DNA of 64,000 nucleotides from Limnochorda sp. LNt (GCF_035593265.1 NZ_CP141614.1:806001-870000), one strand, 5' to 3'. Counted from the first letter of the stretch, positions 49,165-54,366 are shown. Notes: generated from the letters alone by a model not told the origin. Program-made: numbers and translations.

Positions 49165-49473
49165 CTAATCCCTGGCCTCCGGCGGCCCTGAGGCGTCGGC
49201 CGCGTGGGGGTCGTGCCTGCCCGCGAGGGCCCTCCCCAGCAGCCAGCCACCACCGGCCACCGCCACGACGGCGGCCAGGGCCCCCAGCCACAGGGGCCAC
49301 GACATGGCCACCAGGGTGGCGGGGCCCAGCCCGTGCCGTGCGAACCAGAGGAAGTTGAGCGCGACCGCCGCGAGGGTGATGGCGAGCGCCACGATGCCGC
49401 CCCAGCGTCGAGCGGCGACCGAGCCCTCTCCGTCTCGGGACGTGCGCTGGCGCACCCCGGTCGTCCCCCTCAC
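49165..49473 (-). CDS. Small membrane protein, two segments
   Basis: A 102-residue protein with two hydrophobic segments (about 25-47 and 53-77) and a polar tail. GTG start overlaps the stop of the previous minus-strand gene (GTGA), so they are co-translated. No family recognised. Confidence 0.6.
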   Translation of the reverse strand: MRGTTGVRQRTSRDGEGSVAARRWGGIVALAITLAAVALNFLWFARHGLGPATLVAMSWPLWLGALAAVVAVAGGGWLLGRALAGRHDPHAADASGPPEARD

Positions 49474-50273
49474 GCCCGCACCTGGTGGTGGCGCAGGGCG
49501 CCGGTCGCCGGACCGAGCTCCGCGGCCGCGGGGGCGAGCACGTCGGCATCCAAGCGCTGCGCCAGTGCCGCCGCCAGTGCCCGCCACTCCTGCTCCTGCA
49601 GCGGTCGCACCGCCTCGGCGGGAGGTCGCAGCAGAGGTCCGAGCACCTCGGGCACGTGCTCCACGTTGGCCAGCCCCACGCCGAGGACCCGCATCCGCTG
49701 GCGCTCGTCGGGGTGGACGCGGCGCCGCAGGAGCACGATCAGCCCGTATCCCGGCACCCGCGCCGGTGCCCGGGCGTCGGGCTGGACAGGAGCGGCGCGG
49801 TGAGGTGCCTCCTGCTCGCCCGACTGGACCTGCGCCTTGAGCTGGCGGACGGCCTCTCTCAGACCGGCCGCGGCGCGCTGCAGCCGCCGCGCGGCTCCAC
49901 CCCTGCGGGTGGACTCGGCCATCGAGAGGGCCGCCGCCACCATGACCCCACCGGGACCGACCAGGAGATAGCCCCGGCTCCAGCCGCGACGCCGGCTCCA
50001 GGCAGGGGGGAGCCGCAGCACGGCCAGCCCGCTCGAGGCCCCGGCCAGCCGCCGCTCGAGCTCCTGGAGCGCCCGGCCGATCTGGTAGGACTCGGCGGCC
50101 GCGGCGAGCGCCCAACCCGTCAGCACCAGGAGCAGGGTGGCGGCCATGCGGTACCCGGGCACACCCGTGGTGACCGTGGCCCGAAAGGCTGCCCCGGAGA
50201 CCAGGGCCGCCAGCAGGGCGGTCCCCAGCCATGCGCGTACCGCTCGTCCCGTCACCTGATCGTCGCCACCCAT
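49470..50273 (-). CDS. Membrane-anchored hypothetical protein
   Basis: A 267-residue protein. Two N-terminal membrane segments (about 12-32 and 42-60) precede a cytosolic part with RGYLLVGPGGVMVAAALSMAEST, which may be a NERD-like or related fold; LIVLLRRRV and GLANVEHVPEVLGPLL follow. An ATG at 50273 is used; GTG 50255 is a possible later start. It precedes the small membrane gene with overlapping codons and lies just downstream of the bc complex cluster. Confidence 0.6.
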   Translation of the reverse strand: MGGDDQVTGRAVRAWLGTALLAALVSGAAFRATVTTGVPGYRMAATLLLVLTGWALAAAAESYQIGRALQELERRLAGASSGLAVLRLPPAWSRRRGWSRGYLLVGPGGVMVAAALSMAESTRRGGAARRLQRAAAGLREAVRQLKAQVQSGEQEAPHRAAPVQPDARAPARVPGYGLIVLLRRRVHPDERQRMRVLGVGLANVEHVPEVLGPLLRPPAEAVRPLQEQEWRALAAALAQRLDADVLAPAAAELGPATGALRHHQVRA

Positions 50274-50307: not shown

Positions 50308-51147
50308 TCACTTGAGGCCCATCAGATAGCGGGCCACGATGTCGGCCTCCTCGTCGGTGAGGCCCAGATCGGGCATCTGGGTCGGCCCGTAGTCGATGCG
50401 CGTCCCGGACGGCTGGCCGTCGGGGCCGATGCCCGCGAAGTTGGAGAAGTAGACCGGCGCCCGGTTGGCCGTCGTCTGCGGGTCCTGGATCCAGCCCACC
50501 AGGAAGTCATGGTCCAGCCCCCACGACCCCACGTCGCTCAGGTTGGGGCCGATGTAGCCGCCGACGCTGCCGATGGTGTGGCAGACGAGGCAGCCCTTCT
50601 GCGCGATGATGGCCTGAGCCTGCTGCTGTACATCCTGGGGCACGCCCCGGGCAGGCGGGAGCTCACCCTCGAGCCGGGCCGCGGGGATGTAGCGGCTGAC
50701 CCGTTGCCACTCGCCGGACATCAGGAAGTAGACGACCTCACGCAGGGCCTGCTCGTTGAGCGGGCCGCCCGCCTCGACGCTCCACGCTGGCATCGCCGTG
50801 AAGGAGGCCCACTCCCCGGTCGGCAGGCGCACCCAGCGCGGCGTGGTGGAGCCCGGTCGGCCGCGGGCCACCGTGTTGTAGAGGAAGTCGTAGGTCTCCC
50901 GATCGGTCTCGGGGTCGCCCTGGAGGGCCTCCCGGTCCAGGGCCGGGCCCACGACGCCCTCCCCCGCGGGCCCGTGGCAGATGACGCAGTTTTGCGCGTA
51001 GAGCTGGGCACCCCGCTCGACCATCTCGGCCCGAAAGGCCGCCTGCGTCGCGGCCATCCGGTTGCCCTCGCGGGCCCAGTAGACGCCCCAGACGACGACC
51101 AGAGCCCAGCTCAGGATCGTGACGATGACGTAGGTTCTGCCCTTCAC
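50308..51147 (-). CDS. Membrane-anchored diheme cytochrome c
   Basis: A 279-residue c-type cytochrome with one N-terminal membrane anchor (about 5-25) and two heme sites, CVICH (about 54-58) and CLVCH (about 183-187). Met ligands are available in SFTAMPAWS and TQMPDLGL. It is the last gene of the respiratory cluster and should take electrons from the Rieske protein, as a fused diheme equivalent of cytochrome c1. GTG start with AGAGGAG 11 bases away. The terminal oxidase is not in the window. Confidence 0.9.
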   Translation of the reverse strand: MKGRTYVIVTILSWALVVVWGVYWAREGNRMAATQAAFRAEMVERGAQLYAQNCVICHGPAGEGVVGPALDREALQGDPETDRETYDFLYNTVARGRPGSTTPRWVRLPTGEWASFTAMPAWSVEAGGPLNEQALREVVYFLMSGEWQRVSRYIPAARLEGELPPARGVPQDVQQQAQAIIAQKGCLVCHTIGSVGGYIGPNLSDVGSWGLDHDFLVGWIQDPQTTANRAPVYFSNFAGIGPDGQPSGTRIDYGPTQMPDLGLTDEEADIVARYLMGLK

Positions 51148-51165
51148 GCGTCGAGCGGCTCCTCT

Positions 51166-51267
51166 CTACTCGTCCCGGATGGCCCGGTCGATGAAGTACA
51201 GGGCGGCCAGACCCACCACGACCAGGAGGAAGACCAGCAACAGCTCGACGGATTCGGAGACTTCCAC
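51166..51267 (-). CDS. 33-residue single-pass membrane peptide of the bc cluster
   Basis: A short reading frame between the Rieske and cytochrome c genes. It has an acidic start (VEVSESVE), a hydrophobic core of about 18 residues (LLLVFLLVVVGLAALYFI) and a charged end (DRAIRDE). Codon bias is that of the neighbours and GAGAGGAG lies 11 bases before the GTG. The position and size recall the tiny PetG/PetL/PetN/CcoQ-type subunits that stabilise respiratory complexes. Homology is not claimed. Confidence 0.6.
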   Translation of the reverse strand: MEVSESVELLLVFLLVVVGLAALYFIDRAIRDE

Positions 51268-51294
51268 CGCTCGCTCGACTCCTCTCGCCCTGCC

Positions 51295-51912
51295 TCAGAC
51301 GGGCGTCACGTGCTCCGGGAGGTGGACGGAGCGCTCGTGGATCTCCCGGGTGTTGACGATGACCCGACCGTTGACGATCTCCACCGTCATGTAGTCCAGC
51401 GGCCGGGGCGCCGGGCCGGCGATGTTCTGGCCCGTGCGCTCGTAGATGGAGCCGTGGCAGGGGCAGTGGAAGAGGTTCTCCTCCTCCCGCCACGGCACGG
51501 TGCAGCCCAGGTGCGTGCAGCGCCAGTACAGCGCGATGATGCCGTCCTCCAGGCGGCTCAGGTAGAACTTGCCCTCCCGAAACGGCGTCACCGAGCCGAC
51601 GGGGAAGTTGGCCAGGGGACCGGCGTCGATGCGGGAGCCGAAGCCCGTGACCCGACGGGGCCAGAACATGGCCAGGCCCGCCAGGGCACTCTGCACGAAG
51701 AAGACGATGGCAGAGCCCCACATGAGCCAGCGCAAGACGTAGCGGCGCTTGAAGTCGGGATCGTTGGGATCCACCTCGGTGCCCCGAGCGGCGCTGCGGG
51801 CAGGACGAGCCGCAGCGGCCGAGGACGGGCCGGCGGCGGTCCGGGCCGCGACCGACGGGCGCGGCGAGGCAGCCGCGGCAGGCTTCTCAGGCGTGGTCGG
51901 CTGCGACTCCAT
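51295..51912 (-). CDS. Rieske [2Fe-2S] protein
   Basis: A 205-residue Rieske subunit with a long Ala/Pro-rich N-terminus (about 45 residues), one membrane anchor (about 63-85) and a periplasmic Rieske fold. Cluster ligands are CTHLGC and CPCHGS, both intact. It transfers electrons from quinol in the bc complex to cytochrome c. ATG 51912 has GGAGAG about seven bases before. Confidence 0.95.
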   Translation of the reverse strand: MESQPTTPEKPAAAASPRPSVAARTAAGPSSAAAARPARSAARGTEVDPNDPDFKRRYVLRWLMWGSAIVFFVQSALAGLAMFWPRRVTGFGSRIDAGPLANFPVGSVTPFREGKFYLSRLEDGIIALYWRCTHLGCTVPWREEENLFHCPCHGSIYERTGQNIAGPAPRPLDYMTVEIVNGRVIVNTREIHERSVHLPEHVTPV

Positions 51913-51939
51913 CGTGACTCTCTCCTCACCTCTCCGGGT

Positions 51940-52764
51940 TCAGTGGTTGGCCGGGGGGATCTCCCACGGCCACATCAGCGCCATGCCGGGTCCGCGAAAC
52001 GCGGTGCCCACGATGGTCAGCACCAGGAACGAGGCGACGAAGAACGTGAACAGGCCGATGGCCTGCTCCCGGGTGTCGGCGTGCCACCGGCGCCGGAGGA
52101 TGAGCACCAGGGAGGCCGGGATCAGCAGCATGATGAAGCTGGGCACCAGCCAGCCCGCCACCACGCTGATCAGTTGGTCGCTCAGCGGCCACCCGGCCGC
52201 CTGGAGGTTGTGCAGCCAGTACCGGATGATGGGCCCGATGCCGTGAGCGCCGGCTTCGCCGGGCACCGGCAGGTACTCGTCGATGAGGATCAGGGCGATG
52301 TTCCAGATCGAGGTGTAGACGAAACTGAGGACGGTGATGGCCACGCCGCGCGGGCTGTAGAACCAGACGCCTGTGCCCTTGCGGCGCACGTCGATGTAGG
52401 GCAGGGCTGCGAGCCCCAGCAGCACGGCGCCCGGCACGATGACGCCGGCCAGCGCCTTGTCCATGTGCAGCAACAGCTCTTGCAGCCCCAGGAAGTACCA
52501 GGGCGCCTTGGCCGGGTTGGGGGTCACGTCGGGATTGGCCAGCGGCGCCAGGGGCGCGTCGATGAAGACCGCCATCACGGAGAGGAGCAACAAGAAGAGC
52601 AGGGCGGCGATGAACTCGATGCGCACCAGGTACGGCCAGACCAGCACCTTCTCCATGGGGTTGGGTGCGCCGGCCGTCGACGGGGCACCGGCACCGGCGG
52701 CCCGTGCCGGTCGCGTGGCGGGCCGGGCCTGCGTCTGCGTCTCGGGGGTCGCCATCGCCACCAT
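51940..52764 (-). CDS. Cytochrome b C-terminal subunit (subunit IV-like)
   Basis: A 274-residue membrane protein equivalent to subunit IV of b6f-like complexes. About seven hydrophobic segments are visible, more than the three of PetD. The quinol-oxidation motif is KAPWYFLGLQELL in place of PEWY, a form seen in menaquinol-type bc complexes. An Ala/Pro-rich N-terminal tail precedes the first segment at about 45. ATG 52764 shares one base with the stop of the cytochrome b6 gene and has GGAGG seven bases away. Confidence 0.92.
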   Translation of the reverse strand: MVAMATPETQTQARPATRPARAAGAGAPSTAGAPNPMEKVLVWPYLVRIEFIAALLFLLLLSVMAVFIDAPLAPLANPDVTPNPAKAPWYFLGLQELLLHMDKALAGVIVPGAVLLGLAALPYIDVRRKGTGVWFYSPRGVAITVLSFVYTSIWNIALILIDEYLPVPGEAGAHGIGPIIRYWLHNLQAAGWPLSDQLISVVAGWLVPSFIMLLIPASLVLILRRRWHADTREQAIGLFTFFVASFLVLTIVGTAFRGPGMALMWPWEIPPANH

Positions 52765-53531
52765 CACCCTTCCTCCATGGCCGGCGGCACGCCCGGCCCC
52801 TCGGCCTCGTCCTCCAGCACGGGCGTGGAGATCCCGCCGTCCTTGCGCACACGCCAGAAGTGCAGCGACATCAGGCCGATGACGGCCAGGGGCAGGAAGA
52901 TGACGTGGAGCGTGTACCAGCGGATGAGTGTCGCCTGGCCGATCTCGTACCCGCCCAAGAGCAAGAAGTTGATCTGATCCCCGATGAACGGCGTCGCCCC
53001 GCCGATGTTGGTGCCGACCGTGATGGCCCAGTAGGCCAGCTGATCCCACGGCAGCAGGTAGCCCGTGAAGCTCATCAGGAAGGTGAGCGTCAGGAGCGCG
53101 ACGCCGATGACCCAGTTGAACTCACGGGGGGGCTTGTAGGCCCCGGTGTAGAAGACCCGGCACATGTGCAGGAAGACCAGGATCACCATGGCGTGGGCGG
53201 CCCAGCGGTGCAGGTTGCGCATGAACTGGCCGAAGACGACCTCGCTCTCGATGGCCCGGATGGACCAGTAGGCGTCCTGGACGTTGGGGATGTAGTACCA
53301 CATCAAGAAGACCCCGGTCACGGTCAGGATGACGAACATCCAGGCCGACAGCCCGCCCAGCCCCCACGTGTACGTGACCCACGTGCCGCGCCGGACGATA
53401 CGGGCGGGATGCAGGTGCAGCACCAGGCTGTCCACCATGACGGCCAGCCGTGACCTGGTGGTGCTGGGGTAGGGGTTGCGATAGATGGAGCGAAAGACCC
53501 GGGTCGACTTGACCCACTCGAGCACCGACAT
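52764..53531 (-). CDS. Cytochrome b6-like N-terminal subunit
   Basis: A 255-residue four-helix subunit that holds both b hemes. The ligand pairs are His-x13-His (in NLHRWAAHAMVILVFLHM) and His-x14-His (in TLHVIFLPLAVIGLMSLHF), as in b6-type proteins. At the site where Firmicute and b6f proteins have Cys for a covalent heme c(i), this one has TYTWGLGG with no Cys. ATG 53531 follows GGGAGGG. It precedes subunit IV with a TGATG junction. Confidence 0.94.
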   Translation of the reverse strand: MSVLEWVKSTRVFRSIYRNPYPSTTRSRLAVMVDSLVLHLHPARIVRRGTWVTYTWGLGGLSAWMFVILTVTGVFLMWYYIPNVQDAYWSIRAIESEVVFGQFMRNLHRWAAHAMVILVFLHMCRVFYTGAYKPPREFNWVIGVALLTLTFLMSFTGYLLPWDQLAYWAITVGTNIGGATPFIGDQINFLLLGGYEIGQATLIRWYTLHVIFLPLAVIGLMSLHFWRVRKDGGISTPVLEDEAEGPGVPPAMEEG

Positions 53532-53562
53532 CGGGTACCCTCCCTGCGATGCAAGGCCACCG

Positions 53563-53605
53563 CGGCGGCGCCCCGTGCCTCACCGGGGGCGAGGCGGCGC
53601 CGCCG
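53563..53605 (-). terminator. Hairpin between cupredoxin and cytochrome b6 genes
   Basis: CGGCGGCGCC at 53563-53572 pairs perfectly with GGCGCCGCCG at 53596-53605, with a 23-base loop. It could end the cupredoxin transcript or reduce read-through into the bc genes. Confidence 0.45.
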
Positions 53606-53631
53606 TGGGGCCTGGCGGAGTGGTAGTCGGC

Positions 53632-54144
53632 CTACCGCTGGACCACCAGCGTGCCGCGCATCCCCAACTGCTCGTGGCCCGGGATGGTGCAGATGAACCG
53701 GTACTGACCGGGCGTGGACGGAGCCGTCAGGGTCAGGGTCGCCTCCTGGCCCGGGTCGATCTGGCCCGTCTCGACGCCCAGGTCCGGTACCGCCAGATCG
53801 TGGGCGCTGGCGCCCTGGTTGACCACCCGCAAGGAGATCGTCTGGCCAGGCCTCACCTCGATGCGGTCGGGGACGAACCGGAACTGGCCGGCCTCATCGG
53901 TGGCGATGATCTCGATCTCGCCCGAGGCGCTGGTCTGGGAGCCGGACGAGCCGGAGGAGGCCGAAGGTCCGGTCGAGGTCGACGGGGCCGGAGCCGACGC
54001 CGACGAGGACGGGCCCGACGTGGAGCTGGTGGAGGAGGGCTGCGAGCTGCCGCCGCAGGCCGCCACCACCACCATCAGTCCCAGCAGTGACGCGACGAGA
54101 GCCCACCTTCGGGACCGTGCGGACCGTGAACCGCGGGGTTCCAT
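53632..54144 (-). CDS. Lipoprotein with cupredoxin (blue copper) domain
   Basis: A 170-residue exported lipoprotein: signal segment with lipobox VAAC (Cys about residue 30), a Ser/Thr-rich linker of about 45 residues, then a cupredoxin domain. Type 1 copper ligands are His in GASAHDLAV, then Cys, His and Met in FICTIPGHEQLGM. Likely carries electrons outside the cytoplasmic membrane, and its position suggests it accepts from or donates to the bc complex. ATG 54144 is chosen to give a normal signal peptide; GTG 54171 is upstream. Confidence 0.88.
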   Translation of the reverse strand: MEPRGSRSARSRRWALVASLLGLMVVVAACGGSSQPSSTSSTSGPSSSASAPAPSTSTGPSASSGSSGSQTSASGEIEIIATDEAGQFRFVPDRIEVRPGQTISLRVVNQGASAHDLAVPDLGVETGQIDPGQEATLTLTAPSTPGQYRFICTIPGHEQLGMRGTLVVQR

Positions 54145-54366
54145 GGCGACGCGTGCGTCCCCACCTTTCACGTCTGCCGAGTGCCGTTCCCCCGTTGACG
54201 CCGTCTACCCCGTCCGGCGATCCGCGCGAAGTATATGGGGGGTGGGGGGGCAGGTCAAGACGAATAGCCATTATTAACATCTTCCTGCCGTCCATTTCCG
54301 TCCGCCTCGGTGCGGGGGCGTTGCCGCAACGTGGCGTGGTACCATGAGACGAGGTCGGGGTGAGCG

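What the first reader, a model, noticed from the sequence alone, without database searches (positions are those of the whole stretch)
50308..54144. Split cytochrome b complex without the covalent-heme Cys, with altered PEWY
Cytochrome b is divided as in b6f, with His spacings 13 and 14, yet the Cys that holds heme c(i) in b6f and Bacillus-type proteins is replaced in TYTWGLGG. The Qo motif is KAPWYF. Electrons would leave through a diheme cytochrome c and perhaps a lipid-anchored cupredoxin encoded upstream. The mosaic of b6f-like and bc1-like traits is worth placing in a tree.
Basis: partly seen in the sequence, partly recalled or inferred. Interest (0 to 1): 0.6.

Follow-up and report, generated by a model that had tools for sequence, protein, structure and literature searches.

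The report
Respiratory complex III lacking heme-anchoring cysteine
This is the bacterium's ordinary respiratory complex III, from a large and widespread branch with a split cytochrome b; the unusual point is that the cysteine that normally anchors an extra heme has been lost several times in this branch while the rest of that heme's pocket is kept, and the operon also carries a tiny unannotated membrane protein that tracks with the complex.

Summary
The "mosaic of b6f and bc1" reading is only partly right. KAPWYF marks a large clade (support 100/99) found in Chloroflexota, Acidimicrobiia, Thermaerobacter, Acidobacteriota, Ignavibacteria and others, so the motif is ordinary there. Within that clade the cysteine comes and goes: seven changes on the whole tree, and a single Gly clade is rejected (p = 0.0018). 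The window's Bacillota group lost it on its stem. All 14 Gly members keep Arg229 (at b6f Arg207) and a subunit IV Glu58, reported elsewhere as an axial ligand of this heme. The heme pocket therefore looks preserved without its thioether. Whether a non-covalent heme or a quinone sits there cannot be decided here. Beyond the finding, I found a 33-45 aa one-helix protein with no known family. It occurs in the 7 Bacillota genomes with the long-form complex and in none of the 191 others sampled. I call this a new variant of a known kind, not a new system.

The parts
52764..53531 (-). cytochrome b6-like subunit (P0001, 255 aa), helices A-D, two b-heme sites formed by His108, His122, His209 and His224
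   Evidence: (PF00033 8e-49); closest solved structures are cytochrome b6
53361..53363 (-). codon of Gly57, the position of the heme c(i) cysteine (Cys35 of b6f)
   Evidence: alignment to 7r0w and 6rqf; multiple alignment of 60 relatives
52845..52847 (-). codon of Arg229 of P0001, aligned with b6f Arg207
   Evidence: invariant in the 38 KAPWYF-clade rows examined
51940..52764 (-). subunit IV-like subunit (P0008, 274 aa), with a long two-helix insert between helices F and G
   Evidence: (PF00032 5.5e-6); helices of the insert at pLDDT about 87-95
52591..52593 (-). codon of Glu58 of P0008, candidate axial ligand of heme c(i) or quinone-binding residue
   Evidence: aligned with Glu of Bacillus-type subunit IV and with mitochondrial Asp of 'IKDALG'
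52492..52509 (-). Qo motif KAPWYF (PEWY equivalent is APWY)
51295..51912 (-). Rieske iron-sulfur subunit (P0003), CTHLGC ... CPCHGSIY
51166..51267 (-). 33-aa single-helix protein, candidate small subunit (P0006)
   Evidence: conserved in the Bacillota loci of the clade and in Chloroflexota relatives
50308..51147 (-). N-terminally anchored diheme cytochrome c (P0004), two CxxCH
53632..54171 (-). cupredoxin lipoprotein (P0005), possible electron carrier; association with the complex inferred only
   Evidence: conserved upstream only in sister genome G190

Best explanation
The operon encodes the cell's only detected Rieske/cytochrome b complex, a respiratory menaquinol:cytochrome c reductase (complex III) of the split-cytochrome-b, KAPWYF branch. 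Menaquinol is oxidised at the Qo site. One electron goes to the Rieske cluster, then to the membrane-anchored diheme cytochrome c, and on to a cytochrome c oxidase, perhaps with help from the neighbouring cupredoxin. The other crosses the membrane through the two b hemes to the Qi site (standard Q cycle, inferred by homology). The ancestor of this Bacillota group lost the cysteine that would attach heme c(i). Arg229 and subunit IV Glu58, which belong to the same pocket, were kept. I think the thioether is absent. I give about 0.55 that menaquinone binds directly in the pocket, with Glu58 in the role of bc1 Asp228, and about 0.4 that a heme is still held there non-covalently. Shown by sequence: the gene set, the clade, the cysteine loss and the retained Arg and Glu. 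Inferred: quinone type, direction of electron flow, the Q cycle, and what occupies the pocket.
For: Families of all subunits; closest folds and sequences are cytochrome b6. It is the only PF00032 and only P0001-like locus found in the genome. Classical menaquinone gene menD is present at 448 bits, above cut-off, and no futalosine MqnA/D was found. Three strong COX1-family loci. CcmF- and CcmC-like proteins for c-heme maturation, judged by frame size. Tree: KAPWYF clade 100/99, window inside a 29-row clade with 22 Cys rows, its own 6-row group all Gly at 100/100. In every weighting tried, Cys to Gly falls on that group's stem. One clade for all Gly rows is rejected, p-AU 0.0018. All 14 Gly rows keep Arg229 and the subunit IV Glu; three non-Cys rows outside the clade (L104, L111, L128) have lost both. 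PMC11456536 reports aerobic growth, complex III and two cytochrome c oxidases in Limnochordia isolates that this genome may belong with.
Against: No biochemistry. The quinone is inferred from genes. The Rieske protein has both the Ser and the Tyr that raise the redox potential (CHGSIY), which fits a menaquinol chain less well than the Gly/Ala forms seen in many other Bacillota; PMC12954380 notes that low-potential quinones usually pair with lower-potential Rieske proteins. Arg and Glu could be kept for reasons unrelated to a heme.
Confidence: 0.85

Rival explanations
1. The pocket still holds a heme, attached without a thioether: a c(i)-like high-spin heme ligated by Glu58 of subunit IV and bound through Arg229.
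For: All 14 Gly rows, spread over several separate losses, keep both Arg and Glu; three lineages without the cysteine outside the clade have neither. Literature summarised in PMC12954380 gives Glu as the second axial ligand of the menaquinone-type c(N) heme, and PMC9162462 links Arg207 to a proton path controlled by a propionate of haem c(i). The replacement is Gly in all 14 rows.
Against: Glu58 aligns with mitochondrial Asp228, a quinone-binding residue (its role from general knowledge), so its conservation does not need a heme. Two Cys rows lack the Glu (L014, L071). Two other non-Cys rows, L141 with Arg and Glu and L129 with Glu, blur the contrast.
Confidence: 0.4
2. The complex is a b6f/bc1 mosaic, or an early intermediate that never had heme c(i).
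For: Split cytochrome b with b6f His spacing, a cysteine-less c(i) site and a diheme cytochrome c.
Against: Nested among Cys-bearing relatives; the loss maps to the stem of its own group in every reconstruction. No long-chain bc-type row is near it.
Confidence: 0.06
3. It is an ExtP/ExtQ-type complex for selenite/tellurite reduction, as the NCBIfam equivalog hit would label it.
For: P0001 scores 306 bits against NF040969 (ExtP), above its cut-off of 290.
Against: P0008 scores 50 against ExtQ's cut-off of 150. The Geobacter ext cluster has multiheme cytochromes and a porin (PMC5877670); nothing of the kind was seen among the neighbouring frames here, and the downstream partner is a diheme c. 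The ExtP model seems to catch the wider clade.
Confidence: 0.04

Closest known systems
Split Rieske/cytochrome b complexes with KAPWYF in Chloroflexota and Acidimicrobiia (known from genomes; I found no biochemical description)
   Same: Same clade; gene order b6, subunit IV, Rieske, c-type cytochrome; same Qo motif; same Arg and Glu.
   Different: Most carry the c(i) cysteine. Acidimicrobiia and part of the Chloroflexota have a short subunit IV and no detectable small one-helix protein.
Cytochrome b6f complex of cyanobacteria and chloroplasts
   Same: Split cytochrome b, His spacing 13/14, Arg at position 207, Rieske partner.
   Different: No c(i) cysteine, APWY instead of PEWY, no cytochrome f, five-helix subunit IV, diheme c.
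Bacillus-type QcrABC menaquinol:cytochrome c reductase
   Same: Split cytochrome b in Bacillota, probably menaquinol as donor, subunit IV Glu.
   Different: Bacillus-type rows have the cysteine, PDWY, Rieske gene upstream of b6, and fall elsewhere on the tree. From general knowledge QcrC is fused to its cytochrome c; here the two are separate genes.
Actinobacterial cytochrome bcc (QcrABC)
   Same: Diheme cytochrome c with N-terminal anchor (weak QcrC similarity).
   Different: Cytochrome b is one long chain there; related long-chain rows (L111, L128) serve as the outgroup.
Geobacter ExtO/ExtP/ExtQ
   Same: ExtP profile matches P0001 above cut-off; Rieske and split cytochrome b.
   Different: ExtQ below cut-off; no ext-type multiheme cytochromes or porin seen beside it.

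Membership tests
Rieske/cytochrome b (cytochrome bc) superfamily | Cytochrome b with two bis-His b-heme sites | tested here: met
   His108/122/209/224 aligned in all 60 rows
Rieske/cytochrome b (cytochrome bc) superfamily | Rieske protein with two Cys-x-His-type boxes and disulfide cysteines | tested here: met
   CTHLGC ... CPCHGS, PF00355
Rieske/cytochrome b (cytochrome bc) superfamily | Qo motif of the PxWY kind | tested here: inconclusive
   APWY in KAPWYF, aligned at the PEWY site: Trp-Tyr kept, Pro replaced by Ala and Glu by Pro; shared by the whole clade
Cytochrome b6f complex | Split cytochrome b with His spacing 13/14 | tested here: met
Cytochrome b6f complex | Covalent heme c(i) cysteine | tested here: not met
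   Gly57
Cytochrome b6f complex | Cytochrome f as c-type subunit | tested here: not met
   P0004 matches only Cytochrom_C and CBB3-type families, two CxxCH
Bacillus-type QcrABC | Covalent heme cysteine and PDWY motif | tested here: not met
bc1 complex (mitochondrial/alphaproteobacterial) | Single-chain cytochrome b | tested here: not met
   two genes
ExtP (NF040969) | Score above the curated equivalog cut-off | tested here: met
   306.4 against 290 bits
ExtP (NF040969) | Partner ExtQ and ext multiheme cytochrome/porin cluster | tested here: not met
   ExtQ 50 bits against 150; neighbours differ
Heme c(i)-containing complexes (any) | A heme present in the Qi pocket | not testable with these tools
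   needs spectroscopy or a structure; only pocket residues were examined

The most novel reading that the evidence does not exclude
The cysteine-less KAPWYF complexes bind a c(i)-like heme at the Qi site without any covalent bond, held by subunit IV Glu58 and Arg229, and have lost the thioether repeatedly. In addition, part of this clade carries a previously undescribed 33-45 aa one-helix subunit that goes with the enlarged, two-helix-inserted subunit IV.
Probability: 0.3. Interest if true: 0.65.

Novelty: new variant of a known kind. Interest (0 to 1): 0.4.

Why it matters
Why b6f and related complexes carry heme c(i), and why it is covalently bound, is an old open question. A clade in which the anchoring cysteine has been lost several times while the rest of the pocket is kept gives natural controls: close relatives with and without the thioether, some of them probably in culture. 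The small one-helix protein would add a subunit to a respiratory complex that has been annotated only as three or four proteins.

Tried and rejected
Mosaic or primitive state: rejected by the tree and parsimony. ExtP function: rejected on ExtQ score and context. KAPWYF as an oddity of this genome: rejected, it is the norm of a large clade. Structure of subunit IV: the AlphaFold model is weak in its first half (mean pLDDT 69.8), and Foldseek gave no meaningful match; it was used only for helix count. Residues covarying with the cysteine (positions 33, 64, 220) were listed but are confounded by relatedness, so no claim is built on them. A test of the window clade plus L164 as one Gly group did not reject it (p 0.097), so the loss in L164 may not be separate; a third test did not finish. 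The Qo-motif and Rieske/cytochrome b phylogeny papers (Kao and Hunte 2014; Baymann et al. 2012) were not held, so published motif classes and published statements on the c(i) cysteine could not be checked. Pfam found no credible family for the small protein even at E = 10.

Full report
What was checked. The five genes of the finding are real and collinear on the minus strand: cupredoxin lipoprotein 54171-53632, b6-like cytochrome b 53531-52764, subunit IV 52764-51940, Rieske 51912-51295, diheme cytochrome c 51147-50308. Pfam and NCBIfam support each assignment. Heme ligands are His108/122 and His209/224, spacing 13 and 14. Aligned with solved cytochrome b6, the c(i) cysteine falls on Gly57. 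The Qo motif is KAPWYF, that is APWY at the PEWY site.

Which organism. The window lies in a 3,019,339-base single-contig genome. Its sister genome G190 has the same operon at 80% identity for cytochrome b. PMC11456536 describes aerobic Limnochordia isolates with complex III and two cytochrome c oxidases. G055 has the length I remember for Thermaerobacter marianensis; that is recalled, not tested.

Place in the family. In sampled whole genomes a relative was found in 31 of 199 Bacillota and 103 of 151 genomes of the phylum of G199, recorded as Chloroflexi. A tree of 60 cytochrome b6 rows, built without the cysteine columns, puts the window in a clade with 100/99 support whose readable members nearly all have KAPWYF, inside a subclade of 29 rows of which 22 have the cysteine. 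Its own group of six Bacillota rows (100/100) is all Gly. The label Cys/non-Cys needs seven changes. One clade for all Gly rows is rejected at p-AU 0.0018. With three cost settings, the stem of the window's group is always a loss. The Bacillus-type complexes of other Bacillota lie elsewhere, with the cysteine and with PDWY or PEWY. A transfer from a Chloroflexota-like source is a likely explanation (inference).

The heme pocket without its cysteine. Across the rows I read two further pocket residues: Arg229 of the b6 subunit (b6f Arg207) and a Glu in the first helix of subunit IV (Glu58). All 14 Gly rows keep both. All Cys rows keep the Arg, and all Cys rows in which subunit IV could be read keep the Glu except L014 and L071. 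Three rows outside the clade without the cysteine (L104, L111, L128) have neither. PMC12954380 summarises evidence that Glu is the second axial ligand of this heme in menaquinone-type complexes. But Glu58 also aligns with Asp228 of mitochondrial cytochrome b, which from general knowledge binds quinone at Qi, and in an ungapped alignment it falls next to, not on, b6f Phe40 (from the match ranges and the b6f sequence as I know it). So the retained residues show constraint on the pocket, not a heme in it.

Other features. Subunit IV carries an insert between helices F and G with two extra helices. Clade members fall into long forms (148-229 residues after the motif) and short forms (83-104). The Rieske protein has both Ser and Tyr after the second box (CHGSIY), a high-potential signature, while most Bacillus-type rows here have Gly or Ala. 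The genome has menD but no futalosine enzyme, CcmC/CcmF-like proteins but no ResB, and three strong COX1-family loci.

A small protein. Between the Rieske and cytochrome c genes is a 33-codon reading frame with one predicted helix (51267-51166). Homologues, most with a clear ribosome-binding site, stand at the same place in all nine Bacillota loci of the clade read in full, after cytochrome c in Chloroflexota L004 and L178, and before b6 in L183. Substitutions between near pairs favour third codon positions (8, 7, 21; p = 0.006). A profile made from these rows finds it at E below 1e-14 in 7 of 198 Bacillota genomes, exactly those with the long-form complex, and with confidence in no other; these rows partly built the profile, so the informative part is its absence elsewhere. 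In Chloroflexota a hit was found in the 9 tested genomes with the long form of the window's subclade (4 weak, E 1e-4 to 0.01) and not credibly in the short-form genomes tested. In four (G308, G340, G356, G276) it is an orphan gene away from the operon, such as MVVSEGMELIIVLAVMIANLVALVLIQRWTGLT. Three long-form rows of another branch (L008, L024, L060) gave no credible hit. I propose a small subunit packing on the inserted helices (inference, about 0.65).

Verdict. It is a normal respiratory complex III of an under-described but widespread clade, with a repeatedly lost heme anchor as its one real surprise.

Noticed in passing
window 51166-51267 (minus): Unannotated 33-aa one-helix protein (consensus E-S-V-E-L-L) conserved with the long-form complex in Bacillota and Chloroflexota, sometimes as an orphan gene elsewhere in the genome.
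   Followed up: yes
window 51940-52764 (minus): Subunit IV has an insert with two extra helices between F and G; clade members split cleanly into long and short forms.
   Followed up: partly
window 51295-51912 (minus): Rieske protein has both Ser and Tyr (CHGSIY), a high-potential signature, although the genome encodes a menaquinone pathway.
   Followed up: partly
window 49470-50273 (minus): Membrane protein of unknown family just downstream of the cytochrome c gene, also next to the operon in G190, L002, L003 and L135 (28-43% identity).
   Followed up: no
window 52764-53531 (minus): NCBIfam equivalog ExtP (selenite/tellurite operon) scores above cut-off on this ordinary complex III subunit; the model probably mislabels many members of the clade.
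   Followed up: partly
L005 473-1648, L039 2569-3981: In Vicinamibacteria and Verrucomicrobiota relatives the two halves of cytochrome b are fused in one frame within the same clade.
   Followed up: no
L014, L071: Two relatives have the c(i) cysteine but lack the subunit IV glutamate (Met and Val instead), the reverse of the window's situation.
   Followed up: no
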